Assembly: GCA_012517355.1 (NCBI GenBank)
Contig: JAAYVD010000148.1
Location: 1 to 51,807 of the forward strand
Length of the DNA stretch: 51,807 nucleotides
Reading direction: 5' to 3'
Source of the DNA: Candidatus Rifleibacteriota bacterium
Lineage (GTDB): Bacteria; Muiribacteriota; Ozemobacteria; Ozemobacterales; Ozemobacteraceae
Under the pieces are notes generated by a model, which searched no databases, was not told where the DNA came from, and saw only the letters and a list, made by a program, of their open reading frames with translations. Positions within the stretch are counted from its first letter, which is position 1. Each line of letters begins with the position of its first letter. Both the position numbers and the translations under genes were made by a program. Shown here piece by piece: positions 22,985 through 28,964 of this stretch.

Positions 22985-23406
22985 GGGAAAAACCTCTAAG
23001 TCTGAGAACTTCCGGACGGTTTGCCCTGACGGGTTGCTCCGGATGGTCGGATTCGCTTCACGCAAATCCCATACCACCTTCGGCAGTTGGCCATTCCCCG
23101 CTTAGGGGGCCAATCTGCCCATTGGTTGCACATTCGACCGCGCGGCGCCTGGGCATTTTTTGAGCAACGATCACCGGGAAACCGGCGAAGCCGTCCGGGA
23201 AAACGCTTCAGAGCTCGCAATGAGGATTCCTGTCGACCTTCCCGGCCGATTGACAACCCTGCCGGCCTCCCGTATGATCGGCCAATCCCCACCTGGTTCG
23301 GCCCCGACCACCCGCCAACCCCTTCCCTCGCCACCGGCCTCCCGCTCTGCCGCGCCGGGAAGCGGTGATCACCGGACCAGGCAAGCGGGGCAAAGGAGGA
23401 GAACCC
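22985..23406. other. Divergent intergenic region
   Basis: About 420 bases between a minus-strand secreted-protein gene and a plus-strand 79-residue gene. It contains the sigma-70 promoter at 23250-23278 and both Shine-Dalgarno sites. Nothing else recognisable. Confidence 0.5.
23250..23278 (+). promoter_or_regulatory. Strong sigma-70-type promoter
   Basis: TTGACA at 23250-23255, 17-bp spacer, TATGAT at 23273-23278. It predicts a transcript start near 23285 and a leader of about 120 nt before the ATG at 23407. Confidence 0.7.
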
Positions 23407-23646
23407 ATGAAAAGCGTTCGTATCGAGTTCGCCGGCCCACAATCGGAAGCGATGGCCCGCCGGTTCTTTTCCTACCTGGTCGACGGTGGCCTCGAGGACC
23501 ACCTGATCCAGAACCTGTCAGGGGCCGGATCCACCCTCGAGATCACCGACAGCCACGCGGGCGACCTCACCGTCCTCTTCCAGTGCCGCGAAGGCCAGGA
23601 AGCGACCGGCAAAACCCCCAAAACCCGCCGCCTCCGCGCCCTGTAG
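23407..23646 (+). CDS. Small protein of unknown function, 79 residues
   Basis: ATG at 23407 is preceded by a near-perfect AAAGGAGG, so translation is likely to be strong. The protein (MKSVRIEFAGPQSEAMARRF..., then LVDGGLEDHLIQNLS and LTVLFQCREGQE) is predicted alpha/beta, soluble and without signal peptide or membrane segment; the end is basic (KTPKTRRLRAL). It is alone on its strand behind a strong promoter with a long leader. I do not recognise the family. Confidence 0.75.
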   Translation: MKSVRIEFAGPQSEAMARRFFSYLVDGGLEDHLIQNLSGAGSTLEITDSHAGDLTVLFQCREGQEATGKTPKTRRLRAL

Positions 23647-23781
23647 GAGGTTTCCGACCCGGCCGGGGCGGGTCCCCTGCCCCCCGGGGAAGCCCGCCAG
23701 ACCAGGCCATCGTGGTCATCCTGGCTCAGCCGTGATTCAGGCTCCCCCCTGATTTCTCTACCAGAGCCCGATCAGGAGAAG

Positions 23782-23805
23782 CCCCCCGCGCTGACGCGCG
23801 GGGGG
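23782..23805. terminator. GC-rich hairpin between convergent genes
   Basis: Stem CCCCCCGCG/CGCGGGGGG with a 6-nt loop between the stops of the 79-residue gene and the ABC exporter operon. No T tract. Confidence 0.45.
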
Positions 23806-23831
23806 CGGGTCGATCAGGACCGGCGCGGGGC

Positions 23832-25763
23832 TCAGGCGGCCAGCCGGGCGGGGGCCTGGGAGGTCGGGCCCGACGAGGACAGTTCCCGGTAGAGCGGGCA
23901 GGTGCGCTGCAGGTCGGCGTGCGAACCCACCCCCAGCACCCGGCCCCGGTCGAGGACGACGATCCGGTCGGCCACCCGGGCGGTCGCCGCCCGGTGGGTG
24001 ACGATCAGGCAGGTCAGGTCGGGGGCCGCCGCCCGCAACCGGCGCCACAGGCGCCGCTCGTTGGCCGCGTCGAGGCCGGCCGTCACGTCGTCCATCAGCA
24101 GCAACTCCGGCCGGCCCGCCAGGGCGCGGGCCAGCGACAGCCGCTGCTTCTGGCCACCGGACAGGCCGGTGCCGCGCGGGCCGAGCCGTTCCCCGAACCC
24201 GCCCGGGAGCCGCTCGATCTCCTCGCGCACCTGGGCCAGTTCGGTGGCCCAGACCACCCGTTCCTCGCCGAGGCCGCGCCAGAAGTCGATGTTCCCCCGG
24301 ACGGTCTCCGAAAAGACCACCGGCTCCTGCTGGACCAGGCCGATCCTCTCCCGCCAGGCCCGCCGATCGAGCCCGGCCAGAGGCCAGCCGTCGACCAGGA
24401 TCTCACCCGCCGCCGGGTCGAGCAGCCCGGCAGCCAGGTGTAGAACGGTGCTCTTCCCGGCCCCGATCGGCCCGACCACCGCCACCTTCTCGCCGCGCCG
24501 GACGGTGAAGCTCACCCCCTGCAGCCGGAAGGCATGCCGCCCCTCGCCGGCCGGTTCCGGATAGGCGAACCGGACGTCGCGGAAGGCAAGCTCGGTGAAC
24601 GGCCGATGGAGCGAAGCTCCGCCGGCAGGAAGCGCGGGAATCGCACCCGGAGCCCCGGTGGTCGGTTCCGGTGCCGGGAACCTGGCCTCGCAGCCAGGGA
24701 CTGCCGCACCGGTGACCGCAGCCGCCGACCCGCTTCCCTCGACCTCTTCGAGACGGTCGATGATCACGCAGGCCTGCGACAACGTCACCAGAAGCATGGG
24801 GATGTCCATCACGGTGGGCAGGATCATCCCCAGGTAGCCGAAGAACGCGTAGTAGGCTCCGAGGCTCAGGGCGCCGCGCGCCACCAGCACGCCGCCCCCG
24901 ACCAGCACCAGGATCTCCCCGAGGTAGGTCAGGAACTCGAAGTAGATCTGGAACAGCCCTTCGGTGCGGGCCTGCTCGAACTCGTGCCCCTGCCGCCGCG
25001 TCAGCAGCCCGGCGAACCCGGAACGCTGAGGCTCCTCGGCGGTGAAGGCTTTCAGGATGCGGATCCCGGTGAAGGTCGCCTCGAGGAAGGCGGTCGTTTC
25101 GGACACCTGCTCCTGCACCGCCTCCACCCGGCCCTCCATCGTGGTCTGCAGCCGCCAGAACAGCAGCAGCATCAGCGGCAGCGGCACCACCGCCGCCAGG
25201 GCCAGCCAGGGGTGCAGCAGGAACATGCCTGCCACGCAGCTGACAATGACGGCCGCGGCGGTGATCGCCCGGAAGATGCCGGAACAGCACAGCCAGGGCA
25301 GACCCGAGGGGCCGTTGCGGAGGTTGTCGGTGAGCCGGGTCACCAGGTCCCCCGTGCGGAAGCGCAGGAAGAAGTCGGGCTCCCGCGCCAGGGCCGCCCG
25401 GACGAACCGCTCCCGGAACCGGCGTTCGAAGAACAGGTTCAGCAGCGACCGCACCCAGGGGTAGACGGCCCCGACCAGCGGGCCGAACCCCAGGGCCAGC
25501 AGCAGCAGCAGGTCGCGGTTGCGGCCGGCAAGGGCCTGGTCGAGCCCCAGCCGTCCCGCCTGGAAGGCGGCCAGCCCGGCGGTCAGGCCGTCGAGGACCC
25601 GGCTGAACAGCAGGGGAAGCAGGACGGCGGCGGCGGCCGACAGGCCGGTCAGGACGAACAGACCGGCCGCCGGCCAGCCGAGGCCGCGGTACTGGCCGGC
25701 GATCCAGGCCAGGTAGTAGCGGCGGGGGTGCCGCCGTTCGGGGTTCTGGGTCATCGAAGACAT
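23832..25763 (-). CDS. ABC exporter half-transporter (second subunit), degenerate Walker B Glu
   Basis: Fused six-helix membrane domain and ATPase of the multidrug/lipid/peptide exporter type. The membrane part covers about 1-330, followed by a low-complexity Ala/Pro/Gly linker of about 60 residues and the nucleotide-binding domain: Walker A VGPIGAGKST (about 429-438), Q-loop VQQEPVVF, signature LSGGQKQRLSLARAL, Walker B LLLMDDVTAGLDA, H-loop VTHRAAT. The catalytic Glu after Walker B is Asp (MDD instead of LDE), a hallmark of the non-canonical ATP site of heterodimeric exporters. ATG at 25763 has GAGGA upstream. The frame start overlaps the end of the preceding small ORF. The partner is the gene at 26143-28137; no peptidase domain is present. 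Confidence 0.93.
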   Translation of the reverse strand: MSSMTQNPERRHPRRYYLAWIAGQYRGLGWPAAGLFVLTGLSAAAAVLLPLLFSRVLDGLTAGLAAFQAGRLGLDQALAGRNRDLLLLLALGFGPLVGAVYPWVRSLLNLFFERRFRERFVRAALAREPDFFLRFRTGDLVTRLTDNLRNGPSGLPWLCCSGIFRAITAAAVIVSCVAGMFLLHPWLALAAVVPLPLMLLLFWRLQTTMEGRVEAVQEQVSETTAFLEATFTGIRILKAFTAEEPQRSGFAGLLTRRQGHEFEQARTEGLFQIYFEFLTYLGEILVLVGGGVLVARGALSLGAYYAFFGYLGMILPTVMDIPMLLVTLSQACVIIDRLEEVEGSGSAAAVTGAAVPGCEARFPAPEPTTGAPGAIPALPAGGASLHRPFTELAFRDVRFAYPEPAGEGRHAFRLQGVSFTVRRGEKVAVVGPIGAGKSTVLHLAAGLLDPAAGEILVDGWPLAGLDRRAWRERIGLVQQEPVVFSETVRGNIDFWRGLGEERVVWATELAQVREEIERLPGGFGERLGPRGTGLSGGQKQRLSLARALAGRPELLLMDDVTAGLDAANERRLWRRLRAAAPDLTCLIVTHRAATARVADRIVVLDRGRVLGVGSHADLQRTCPLYRELSSSGPTSQAPARLAA

Positions 25764-26131
25764 GTGTGGATTCCTCGCTCCGAGGGGAGCTGCCAGGCGG
25801 GCCGCGGGTCATCCGCGACAACGCCGATGCGGAAAGGCCCCCGGCCGGCAATGCCAGTTGCTGCCAGGGTGGCCTTGACCGGGAGCGGCCATGCCCGAGG
25901 GTGCCGGACCTGACGCCGCCACGCCGATGGTGGCCCGGCCTGACAGGAGCCAGCCTCACCTCGTCCGGCCTGAGGCCGCCAGGGGTGAAGCGGCCCACTG
26001 TTGGCCGGTCGCGCCTGATCCGGTCGGGCACCCGCCATCCAGGCGGCGAACAGCCGGCCGGGGGATTCCTCTTCGAGCCGGGCCAGGTCGGCCCAGACAC
26101 GGCGGGTCCAGCGGTCCATGACGAACTCCAT
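25751..26131 (-). CDS. Small ORF between the two ABC subunits, unknown
   Basis: A 126-codon frame opens with ATG at 26131 behind a perfect AAGGAGGTGA site, 11 bases after the first ABC subunit stops. It ends by overlapping the first codons of the second subunit, with its TGA inside GATGACC. The start (MEFVMDRWTRRVWADLARLE) looks helical and protein-like. The middle is Arg/Pro/Ala-rich and overlies imperfect direct repeats of about 31 bp, which do not keep the reading frame. So translation start and coupling are well supported, but only the first 35 or so residues look selected. It could be an exporter accessory or substrate peptide, or mainly a translational coupling device. Confidence 0.5.
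   Translation of the reverse strand: MEFVMDRWTRRVWADLARLEEESPGRLFAAWMAGARPDQARPANSGPLHPWRPQAGRGEAGSCQAGPPSAWRRQVRHPRAWPLPVKATLAATGIAGRGPFRIGVVADDPRPAWQLPSERGIHTCLR
25871..25982 (-). repeat. Imperfect ~31-bp direct repeats
   Basis: The motif GGCCTTGACCGGGAGC / CCGGACCTGACGCCGCC / CCGGCCTGACAGGAGCC / CCGGCCTGAGGCCGCC recurs at about 25871, 25904, 25935 and 25965. Spacing of about 31 bp is not a multiple of three. Confidence 0.45.
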
Positions 26132-26142
26132 GGGTCACCTCC

Positions 26143-28137
26143 TTACGCGGCCGCGGGCGCCGACAGGGCCGGGCCCGGCCGCTGGGCAGGCCGGGCTGCC
26201 GCCCGGTCTGCCCGACGTTCACGCCGTCCGCGCCGGCCGGCCCGGGCCCCGAGGTCGAGGCCCTGCATGGCCGCCAGGGTCCGGTAGGGCCCCGGCCGGC
26301 CGACGAGCTCGGCGTGGGTCCCCGCTTCCGCCAGCCGCCCGCGTTCCAGCACCAGGATGCGGTCGGCGGCCACCACGGTGGTCAGCCGGTGGGCGATGAT
26401 GACCGCGGTGCGGCCCGCCATCAGCCGTTCCATGGCCTGCTGCAGCCGCCGCTCGGTCACCGCGTCCACCGCCGAGGTGGCCTCGTCCAGGATCAGCAGG
26501 TCCGGGTTCCGAACCAGGGCCCGCACGTAGCACAACAACTGCCGCTCGCCCAGCGAGAGGTTGGCCCCCCGCTCGGCCAGCACCGTGGCATACCCGGCGG
26601 GCAGCCGCCGGATGAACCGGTCGGCCCCCAGCTCGCGGGCCGCCGCCAACACCCGGCCGTCGTGGATCCCGGGAGCGAAGGCCTTCAGGTTCTCCATCAC
26701 CGTACCGGGGAACAGATGGATCTCCTGCAGGACCAGAGCCACCTTCCGACGCCAGGCACGAGGGTCGAAGGCGCGCAGGTCGCACCCGTCGATCTCGATC
26801 GCCCCGGCCGTCGGGTCGTAGAACCGCAGCAACAGGTTGATGCAGGTGCTCTTCCCCGATCCCGAGGCGCCGACGATGCCGATCCGCTGCCCGCACCGCA
26901 CCGCGAACGACAGGTCGTGCAACACCGGCTCCGCCCCGTAGGCAAACCGAACTTCCCGGAAGGCGATCTCCCGGAACCGGGACGGCACGGGCACCAGGCC
27001 GGAACCGCCAGCGACCGCCGCTCCGGTCTGGCCACCGCCCGCCGTGGCCGCCACCCGAAGCGGCAGGACCGACGAGGCGGCGGCGGCCGCACCGGGAGGC
27101 ACGGGCTGCCCCCCGGTCGTCCCCTGGTCGCCGGCCACCAGGCCGGTTCCCGCCCCTTCGGGCCGCAGGTCGAACAGCCCGAAGACCCGTCCCGTGGCGG
27201 CCAGCCCCGACTGCAGGGCGACGAACACCTCGGCCAGATCGCGCAGGGGCCCGAAGAACCGGCGCAGCAGCTCGAGGAACATGACCAGGGTGCCGACGGT
27301 CAGCCGGCCGGCGAACACCTCGCCGGTGCCGTACCAGAGCACCGCGGCCAGGCCGCCGATCTCGGCCAGGAAGGTGAACCCGCCGTAGAACAGGACGGCA
27401 TCGTAGAACACCCCGCGGGCCTCGAGGTCGGTGCGGGAGCGGGTGGCGGCCGCCACCCGTTCGACGGCGGCCTCCTCGCGTCCGAACAGCCGGAGCAGCG
27501 AGACCCCCTGCACGAACTCGGTGACCCGCGCCGCCATCTCGGAGTCGCGTTCCCGCACCTCGTGCCAGAGCTGCCGGATGAACCGGGCGTAGACCGCCAC
27601 CGCCACCCCGCCACCGATGACTACCAGCAGCAGCCAGCGGCCGAGCACGGGCGCCTGCCACCAGGTCAGGACGGTGATGCCCGCCAGCAGCAGGGCGTTG
27701 GCGGCAAGTTGGGCCGCCGCCCCCGAGACGAGCCCGCGCATCTGCTCGATGTCGTTCTCGACCCGGCTGATGAGCTTGCCGGGCGGATGCCCATCGAAGA
27801 ACCGCAGGTCCTGGGCCAGCAGGTGGCCGAAGACCGCGCCCTTCAACCGGGCCATGACCGAGGTCGCCACGCCCGCCAGCAGCACCGCGCGGGTATAGAG
27901 GGCACCCGCCCCCAGGGCCAGGGCTCCGACGAAGGCGAGGCCGAGCCGGAGCGCCAACCCGGCATCGCGGGCCGGCAGGGCGGTATCGATCAGTTCACGC
28001 AGGATCAGTGGCCGGGCCAGGTGGATGCCGGTCACCAGCAGCATGGTCAGCGCCGCCCCGGCCAGGCCGGCCAGGTGGGGTCGCAGGAAGGTCGACAGGG
28101 TGCGCGCCGCGCGCAGGAAGGGGGACGGCCGAAGCAT
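26143..28137 (-). CDS. ABC exporter half-transporter (first subunit)
   Basis: Membrane domain (about 1-330) plus ATPase, partner of the gene downstream. The nucleotide-binding domain has Walker A GASGSGKST (about 420-428), Q-loop VLQEIHLF, signature LSLGERQLLCYVRAL, Walker B LLILDEATSAVDA with canonical Glu, and H-loop IIAHRL. The signature motif is LSLGE rather than LSGGQ, so it is this subunit's signature and the partner's Walker B that are altered, fitting one degenerate and one active ATP site. A glycine/alanine-rich linker of about 70 residues precedes the ATPase. ATG at 28137 has AAAGGA upstream. It is the first large gene of an operon led by a promoter, a tiny ORF and a terminator. Confidence 0.93.
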   Translation of the reverse strand: MLRPSPFLRAARTLSTFLRPHLAGLAGAALTMLLVTGIHLARPLILRELIDTALPARDAGLALRLGLAFVGALALGAGALYTRAVLLAGVATSVMARLKGAVFGHLLAQDLRFFDGHPPGKLISRVENDIEQMRGLVSGAAAQLAANALLLAGITVLTWWQAPVLGRWLLLVVIGGGVAVAVYARFIRQLWHEVRERDSEMAARVTEFVQGVSLLRLFGREEAAVERVAAATRSRTDLEARGVFYDAVLFYGGFTFLAEIGGLAAVLWYGTGEVFAGRLTVGTLVMFLELLRRFFGPLRDLAEVFVALQSGLAATGRVFGLFDLRPEGAGTGLVAGDQGTTGGQPVPPGAAAAASSVLPLRVAATAGGGQTGAAVAGGSGLVPVPSRFREIAFREVRFAYGAEPVLHDLSFAVRCGQRIGIVGASGSGKSTCINLLLRFYDPTAGAIEIDGCDLRAFDPRAWRRKVALVLQEIHLFPGTVMENLKAFAPGIHDGRVLAAARELGADRFIRRLPAGYATVLAERGANLSLGERQLLCYVRALVRNPDLLILDEATSAVDAVTERRLQQAMERLMAGRTAVIIAHRLTTVVAADRILVLERGRLAEAGTHAELVGRPGPYRTLAAMQGLDLGARAGRRGRRERRADRAAARPAQRPGPALSAPAAA

Positions 28138-28465
28138 GACGGGGTCCTTTCACAGGTTCCGGGGCTCCGGCGGGGCGGGGCGGGGGGCTGGCCCCCCGCT
28201 GGCCGACGGCCGCCGTCATGGGGGAGAGGGGATGGTCATGGTCGCGACGGCGGCGCCGGGAAGACGCGCGGCCGCCCATGACCGGCTTCCGGGTGCGGAA
28301 AGCCTGGTCGTGGAGGGTGAGGATCGGAGTCATGGAGGGTCCTCCTTCCGGCCCGGGGGCCGGGGTCATGAAGCGGTTGCCCGCGCGCAGGGAAAATGGG
28401 TGATCCGGGGCCGGTCTGGCCCGGAACGTGAGACAATGGGAAGATACAGAGGGGAGATAAAGGTT
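28138..28465 (-). other. Leader region between attenuator-like terminator and ABC operon
   Basis: About 330 bases of transcribed leader. It contains an ATG at 28333 with an excellent AAGGAGG site (frame MTPILTLHDQAFRTRKPV...), open to 27995 and therefore overlapping the ABC start by about 140 bases. This may be a second regulatory ORF or a chance frame. Confidence 0.35.
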
Positions 28466-28491
28466 CCGGGCCGCCCTTGCGGACGGCCCGG
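28466..28491 (-). terminator. Intrinsic-terminator-like hairpin in the ABC operon leader
   Basis: On the minus strand an 11-bp stem (CCGGGCCGTCC with GGGCGGCCCGG) closes a GCAA tetraloop and is followed by AACCTTTATCT, a modest T-rich tail. It lies 40 bases after the stop of the 17-codon leader ORF and before the ABC genes. A second hairpin (GGGTCG/CGACCC) sits directly at the leader stop, which would suit alternative folding. Confidence 0.6.
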
Positions 28492-28531
28492 TGGTGATCG
28501 GTTAAGCGATCGGGGGTCGGGAACGACCCGG

Positions 28532-28585
28532 TCAGGCGCGACCCAAGGGAGGTGATGCCGGCTGGCGGCGGCTGTCTTTCGTCAT
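28532..28585 (-). CDS. 17-codon leader peptide of the ABC exporter operon
   Basis: ATG at 28585 follows GAAGGGAG at good spacing and encodes MTKDSRRQPASPPLGRA, ending TGA at 28532. It starts about 40 bases after the predicted transcript start of a strong promoter and is followed at once by a small hairpin and then by an intrinsic-terminator-like hairpin. The peptide contains a Pro-Pro pair after SPP, a context known in general to slow ribosomes. The arrangement promoter, short ORF, terminator, heterodimeric exporter matches ribosome-mediated attenuation as known for bmrB-bmrCD in Bacillus. The peptide has no recognisable relatives from what I can see; the role is inferred. Confidence 0.55.
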   Translation of the reverse strand: MTKDSRRQPASPPLGRA

Positions 28586-28964
28586 CGGCGTTTCTCCCTT
28601 CGTGAAATCGGTGGGTCGGTCAGTGACCGCAATAAATGTATGCAGAACCATCCGTCGTGTCAAGAGCCATCTTCCGGATGCGGAAAAGCCGCGCATCCTG
28701 ACCGGTGTTCCCTCGGCCACGAAATCCGGTTCCCTCATTCACATACAGTTTGTACAATACTAAGGTTTTGCACGGATTCTCAGACGTCTTGTCCCATCCA
28801 CCAGGTGCGGCAGGAGGGTCCAGGGTCTTCCGGATGTCCTGCCCCCCCGGCCGATCGCGGACACGGCCACAACCGGCGGGTCGGAGGCCTTTCCGGGACC
28901 CGTGCTCCGGTCCCGGAATGCCCCTTCGCCGGACGTTCCCCCGCCTGGGTGCCGGTCTCCCGCG
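28586..28964. other. Intergenic region upstream of the ABC operon promoter
   Basis: About 380 bases with an AT-richer patch near 28735-28790. It holds the ABC operon promoter (28635-28663) and the end of the lipoprotein transcript. No terminator with a good T tract or RNA gene was recognised. Confidence 0.45.
28635..28663 (-). promoter_or_regulatory. Strong sigma-70-type promoter of the ABC exporter operon
   Basis: On the minus strand TTGACA (28658-28663), 17-bp spacer, TACATT (28635-28640). Predicted transcript start near 28628, giving a 5' leader with the 17-codon ORF. Confidence 0.7.

What the first reader, a model, noticed from the sequence alone, without database searches (positions are those of the whole stretch)
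28138..28663. Leader peptide plus terminator controlling a heterodimeric ABC exporter
Seen directly: sigma-70 promoter (TTGACA-17-TACATT), then a 17-codon ORF with good ribosome site and a Pro-Pro pair (MTKDSRRQPASPPLGRA), a small hairpin at its stop, an 11-bp terminator-like hairpin with GCAA loop, then a 330-base leader and two ABC half-transporters. Established: Bacillus bmrB-bmrCD uses a leader ORF and terminator so that ribosome-targeting drugs induce a heterodimeric exporter. Inference: this operon is induced by ribosome stalling on the leader. The peptide sequence and the extra leader ORF at 28333 appear unlike the known case.
Basis: partly seen in the sequence, partly recalled or inferred. 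Interest (0 to 1): 0.65.

Follow-up and report, generated by a model that had tools for sequence, protein, structure and literature searches.

The report
Leader-peptide attenuator before ABC exporter
Upstream of a two-gene drug-type export pump in an uncultured bacterium lies a promoter, a 17-codon mini-gene whose ribosome-binding site is masked by its own message, and a terminator-like hairpin; the same layout sits before the related pump in other genera of the family, which points to a switch that raises pump production when ribosomes falter, much as in Bacillus, although the switching step itself could not be shown.

Summary
On the minus strand: TTGACA-17-TACATT promoter, SD AAGGGAG, a 17-codon ORF (MTKDSRRQPASPPLGRA), two small hairpins, an 11-bp GC-rich hairpin with a weak U tail, a 328-nt leader, then two ABC half-exporters. 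In 51.8 kb this promoter + small ORF + hairpin set occurs once, and in 0 of 100 randomised windows. The pump is a heterodimeric exporter by motif: E and LSLGE in one subunit, D and LSGGQ in the other.

New evidence: related pump operons in the same family carry the same layout. All six genomes of genus g4 and a decayed copy in g8 have promoter, 17-21 codon ORF with SD, then hairpin; three of these hairpins have strong U tails. A more distant pump in another family has a 78-codon leader ORF and a canonical terminator. In every short leader the ORF contains a segment that can pair with its own SD. The same-genome paralogue and its orthologues lack the leader.

Not shown: a working antiterminator. 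Folding predicts that the terminator forms wherever a ribosome sits. Drug induction, and sequence homology between the window leader and the g4 leaders, are unproven. Most likely a ribosome-controlled transcription attenuator of the bmrBCD kind, evolved separately: a variant of a known kind.

The parts
28635..28663 (-). sigma-70-type promoter TTGACA-17-TACATT
   Evidence: 10/12; expected 0.1 in 3.1 kb; one of three promoters of at least 10/12 in the window. Function inferred.
28594..28600 (-). Shine-Dalgarno AAGGGAG of the leader ORF
   Evidence: Sequence
28532..28585 (-). 17-codon leader ORF, MTKDSRRQPASPPLGRA*
   Evidence: Sequence; ORFs of 17-21 codons in the same position before related pumps. 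Translation not shown.
28545..28551 (-). CTCCCTT inside the ORF, complementary to its SD; with TGGGTCG 28545-28539 pairing CGACCCA 28618-28612 it forms helix P1
   Evidence: MFE fold; SD:ORF duplex p = 0.017 against shuffles
28514..28529 (-). hairpin H1, GGGTCG-TTCC-CGACCC, directly after the stop codon
28496..28511 (-). hairpin H2, GATCG-CTTAAC-CGATC
28466..28491 (-). terminator-like hairpin T, 11 bp, GCAA loop, -25.4 kcal/mol; tail AACCTTTATC at 28465-28456
   Evidence: counterparts in relatives, three with strong U tracts
28138..28465 (-). 328-nt leader between T and ABC1, holding an SD-preceded ATG at 28333 (ORF runs to 27995, overlapping ABC1)
   Evidence: no Pfam match; no counterpart in relatives
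26143..28137 (-). ABC1: ABC exporter half, Walker-B LILDEATSAVD, signature LSLGE (TM288/BmrD-like role)
23832..25763 (-). ABC2: ABC exporter half, Walker-B LLMDDVTAGLD (D replaces E), signature LSGGQ (TM287-like role)
23781..23806 (-). GC-rich terminator-like hairpin after ABC2 with weak tail TTCTCCTGAT

Best explanation
The segment is a translation-sensing transcription-attenuation leader for a heterodimeric ABC exporter. Shown by sequence: a near-consensus promoter, a 17-codon ORF whose SD is complementary to a segment of the ORF, and a strong GC-rich hairpin before a long leader and the two pump genes; the same layout before related pumps. Inferred: transcription from the promoter mostly ends at hairpin T while ribosomes pass normally through the small ORF. 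When ribosomes stall early on it (drug or other translation block) they hold the SD open and free the ORF's anti-SD segment, which lowers T's efficiency, and the pump genes are read. Least certain step: how the freed segment defeats T. In the g4 relatives the anti-SD segment matches T's loop and 3' arm over 10 nt; in the window the match is 8 of 9 and not above chance.
For: Layout complete and unlikely by chance. Same layout before the exporter pair in six g4 genomes, including G023 on another contig, and a decayed g8 copy, found by covariance model; no convincing other gene carried it. T has strong U tracts in G022, G023 and G009. A more distant pump (G031, family f5) has promoter, 78-codon ORF, canonical terminator and a 9-bp antiterminator match to the terminator's 5' arm, p = 0.002. 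SD:ORF pairing in all short leaders; nominal p 0.017 window, 0.013 G022, 0.017 G023, 0.05-0.14 in the g4 four, 0.33 G009. Ala-Ser followed by six residues and the stop is shared by the window and all six g4 peptides, with different codons in the window (and the G023 sequence). Heterodimer motifs. Precedent: bmrB controls BmrC/BmrD by ribosome-mediated attenuation (PMC4191407).
Against: T is predicted to form whatever the ribosome position in every leader tested; candidate antiterminators in the window are at chance level (p 0.17-0.67; 0.27). T's U tail is weak in the window and in four g4 leaders. The g4 covariance model does not find the window leader, so the likeness is of layout, not of sequence, and could be convergent. 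The leader is absent from the closest paralogues and from g5, g6, f2 and f4 pairs. The p values are from few, partly related lineages and are not corrected for the choice of segments. No expression data exist.
Confidence: 0.5

Rival explanations
1. T is a constitutive partial terminator, like a fixed brake. The small ORF is translated but senses nothing; pump level is set by fixed read-through and rises by mutation or other control.
For: T is predicted always to form. Precedent for a terminator setting pump level before patAB, where mutations that weaken it raise expression (PMC4319486).
Against: An SD-bearing ORF of 17-21 codons with self-complementary SD kept just before T in several genera is not needed for a fixed brake.
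Confidence: 0.25
2. Control acts on translation or RNA stability: the helix around the small ORF's SD and the row of hairpins protect the 5' end or limit ribosome loading, and T does not terminate.
For: Weak U tail in the window and four g4 leaders; P1 is the predicted minimum-energy fold.
Against: Strong U tracts after T in G022, G023 and G009; no structure at the ABC1 start was seen to be shared.
Confidence: 0.12
3. Amino-acid attenuation as in trp or his leaders: the ORF senses a charged tRNA.
For: Short ORF followed by a terminator-like hairpin.
Against: No run of one regulatory amino acid shared by the eight peptides; the regulated genes are exporters, not biosynthetic enzymes.
Confidence: 0.04
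4. Chance: a promoter and hairpin in the space before the pump, with a meaningless 17-codon frame.
For: The window leader is not found by the g4 model; short ORFs are common.
Against: 0 of 100 randomised windows; the same layout before related pumps.
Confidence: 0.09

Closest known systems
bmrB-bmrCD leader, Bacillus subtilis (PMC4191407)
   Same: Leader ORF and terminator between one promoter and a heterodimeric ABC exporter; PDB search puts YheH (BmrD) among the relatives of ABC1.
   Different: bmrB is 162 bp with the terminator inside the ORF and has predicted antiterminator and anti-antiterminator. Here the ORF is 17 codons, T starts 43 nt from the stop codon, the SD is masked by the ORF itself, and no competitive antiterminator was found.
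patAB attenuator, Streptococcus pneumoniae (PMC4319486)
   Same: Terminator before a heterodimeric ABC exporter (heterodimer from own knowledge).
   Different: Its analysis rests on the terminator and RibEx loops; no leader ORF was described in the passages read.
Leaders of erm, msrD, vmlR and tlrB/yxjB type
   Same: Drug-stalled ribosome on a short ORF switches RNA structure (PMC10314930, PMC9226507, PMC6851288; titles and abstracts).
   Different: They control rRNA methylases or ABC-F proteins, in Firmicutes; peptide sequences unrelated (own knowledge).
ABC-leaders of Naville and Gautheret (PMC2965389)
   Same: Predicted premature terminators before ABC transporter operons, including a multidrug export operon in lactobacilli.
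   Different: Different lineages and elements; sensing mechanism not defined there.

Membership tests
Ribosome-mediated transcription attenuator (bmrB type) | One promoter upstream of leader ORF, terminator and exporter | tested here: met
   promoter activity not tested
Ribosome-mediated transcription attenuator (bmrB type) | Translatable leader ORF with SD | tested here: met
   By sequence, and position kept in relatives; translation not tested
Ribosome-mediated transcription attenuator (bmrB type) | Intrinsic terminator (stem + U tract) before the structural genes | tested here: inconclusive
   Strong stem, weak U tail in window; strong U tracts in three relatives
Ribosome-mediated transcription attenuator (bmrB type) | Mutually exclusive antiterminator released by a stalled ribosome | tested here: inconclusive
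   Window candidates at chance; T predicted to win for all ribosome positions, but equilibrium folding cannot exclude kinetic control
Ribosome-mediated transcription attenuator (bmrB type) | Induction by ribosome-targeting antibiotics, lost when the ORF is not translated | not testable with these tools
   Needs expression data
Heterodimeric ABC exporter (TM287/288, BmrCD) | Two neighbouring half-transporters, TMD+NBD each | tested here: met
   Pfam ABC_membrane + ABC_tran in both; tandem pairs across the phylum
Heterodimeric ABC exporter (TM287/288, BmrCD) | Asymmetric ATP sites (one degenerate Walker-B Glu, one degenerate signature) | tested here: met
   ABC1 E + LSLGE, ABC2 D + LSGGQ
Any Rfam family | Score above gathering cut-off | tested here: not met
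   Window region and five g4 loci: no match at the gathering score

The most novel reading that the evidence does not exclude
A separate, lineage-specific class of antibiotic-responsive attenuator in which the leader ORF's own anti-SD segment is the switch strand: paired to the SD when no ribosome is present, and to the terminator's loop and 3' arm when a ribosome stalls early, with the terminator loop copying the SD sequence.
Probability: 0.15. Interest if true: 0.6.

Novelty: new variant of a known kind. Interest (0 to 1): 0.4.

Why it matters
Ribosome-sensing leaders for drug pumps are best known in Firmicutes. A kept promoter - mini-ORF - hairpin layout before a heterodimeric exporter in an uncultured phylum suggests the strategy arose or spread more widely, and gives a small, testable RNA (about 200 nt) that can be moved into a reporter strain. 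It also hints that these bacteria meet ribosome-targeting compounds.

Tried and rejected
DNA search with the window leader in 57 relatives: only short low-scoring hits, no homologue. Rfam: nothing above cut-off. The g4 covariance model on the window: only hairpin T at E about 0.4-0.6 on either strand; its weak hits elsewhere look like ordinary terminators after unrelated genes. Swap matrix (ORF of one leader against T of another): own pairs not consistently best, so no covariation claim for anti-SD:T. A cascade in the window (repeat GGGTCG/CGACCC, H1 5' side mimicking T's 5' arm, -20.6 against -25.4 kcal/mol) looked attractive but is at chance (p 0.17). Pro-Pro stalling: not shared by relatives. 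The ORF at 28333: no Pfam match, no counterpart. Verrucomicrobial and other distant homologues: no comparable leader. Literature: no description of such a leader in this group was found in the searches made.

Full report
What is there. The minus strand carries, in order, TTGACA-17-TACATT (28663-28635), SD AAGGGAG (28600-28594), a 17-codon ORF (28585-28532), hairpins H1 (28529-28514) and H2 (28511-28496), an 11-bp hairpin T with a GCAA loop (28491-28466), a 328-nt leader and the ABC1 gene at 28137, followed by ABC2. The promoter is one of three at 10/12 or better in the 51.8-kb window (0.25 expected), and the set promoter + SD-ORF of 8-40 codons + hairpin of at least 10 bp occurs once against 0 in 100 randomised windows. 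T's tail (AACCTTTATC) is too poor for the standard scan, but the hairpin right after ABC2 has a weak tail as well.

The pump. Both proteins have the exporter TMD and NBD. ABC1 keeps the catalytic Glu but has an LSLGE signature; ABC2 has Asp in place of Glu and a normal LSGGQ. That is the asymmetric pattern of heterodimeric exporters such as TM287/288; the PDB search finds TM288 and YheH among relatives of ABC1 and TM287 among those of ABC2. Tandem pairs about 40-53% identical occur across the phylum. The same genome has a second pair (C168), whose orthologues are in both other genomes of the genus (78-82% identical). The window pair is a long branch: ABC1 groups with that genus set, ABC2 with g4/g5, so its exact ancestry is unsure.

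Relatives' leaders. Upstream of the g4 pairs lies a consensus promoter (TTGACA-17-TATAAT in G005, G012, G017, G021), AGGAGGC, an ORF of 17-18 codons (MYKHPNICVIASICAADL and similar; MNNIFFHRIASICAYSH in G022), and a 12-bp hairpin AAGCGGGTTGCC/GGCAACCCGCTT. A covariance model of these five, run on all 40 held genomes of the phylum, added G023 (MIINYIPQVDASLCATDL, strong U tract) and G009 of genus g8 (MLNKAVVFDYSFAFVCASFLR), where ABC1 is broken by stops. No other convincing carrier appeared, so the element is tied to this pump. G031, in another family, has a 78-codon leader ORF, a canonical terminator (TTTTTTT) and an upstream 9-bp match to the terminator's 5' arm (p = 0.002). Pairs in g5, g6, f2, f4 and the C168 set lack a leader of this form.

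Is the window leader one of them? By layout, yes; by sequence, not shown: the model sees only T. Shared register: Ala-Ser at residues 10-11 (11-12 in five g4 peptides) and six residues to the stop in the window and all g4 peptides. In the window these codons (GCA TCA) are not part of the anti-SD segment. This was noticed after the fact and is one motif of two residues, so it is weak evidence.

RNA switching. In every short leader the ORF holds a segment complementary to its SD (7 bp in the window, extended by CGACCCA:TGGGTCG). Nominal shuffle p values are 0.017 (window), 0.013 (G022), 0.017 (G023), 0.05-0.14 (the other four g4) and 0.33 (G009); the lineages are not independent. The same segment can pair T's loop and 3' arm in the four g4 leaders (8-10 bp, p 0.002-0.02) but at chance level in G022, G023, G009 and the window. 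Equilibrium folding with a blocked ribosome footprint gives T a probability of 0.91 to 1.0 for all positions in all six leaders tested. This argues against a simple thermodynamic antiterminator; it does not exclude kinetic control, and the bmrB authors also call their antiterminator less favourable than the terminator.

Known systems. BmrB of Bacillus is a 162-bp ORF with the terminator inside it; drugs that hit ribosomes raise bmrCD and this is lost on ribosome methylation (PMC4191407). The present leader works, if at all, like that, but its parts differ: a shorter ORF, T beyond the stop, SD masked by the ORF. I therefore call it a variant of a known kind, with the switching step and drug induction inferred.

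The organism. The genome is an unnamed 7.1-Mb, 184-contig assembly; its phylum has 40 held genomes. I could not name it with these tools.

Noticed in passing
25764-26142 (-): The two ABC genes are separated by 379 nt, while the homologous pairs overlap or nearly touch (gap -20 to +15). The gap holds an SD-preceded ORF at 26131 (126 codons, no Pfam match), whose first 40 or so codons look coding.
   Followed up: partly
28333-27995 (-): ORF with strong SD (GGAAGGAGG) and third-position GC of 0.82 upstream of ABC1, running some 48 codons into ABC1 in another frame; no Pfam match.
   Followed up: partly
L136, L138, L139, L141 and L189, between hairpin T and ABC1: A second short ORF of 9-10 codons (MNNSDKNRYS, MNITNKTRYG, MNKKGTQKG) follows T in four g4 genomes and G009, but not in G022 or G023.
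   Followed up: partly
L147 1-440 (G031): Leader ORF of 78 codons, canonical terminator, and a 9-bp antiterminator match (CGGCCCCGC to GCGGGGCCG) before a more distant ABC pair: a cleaner attenuator candidate than the window.
   Followed up: partly
L189 (G009): The exporter genes after a well-kept leader are broken by stops and frame changes, which suggests recent loss.
   Followed up: no
23250 (+): Near-consensus promoter TTGACA-17-TATGAT (11/12) before a small plus-strand ORF (23365-23646).
   Followed up: no
window 23832-28137: The window's exporter pair sits on long branches (1.6 and 2.1 changes per column), far more diverged than the C168 pair of the same genome.
   Followed up: partly
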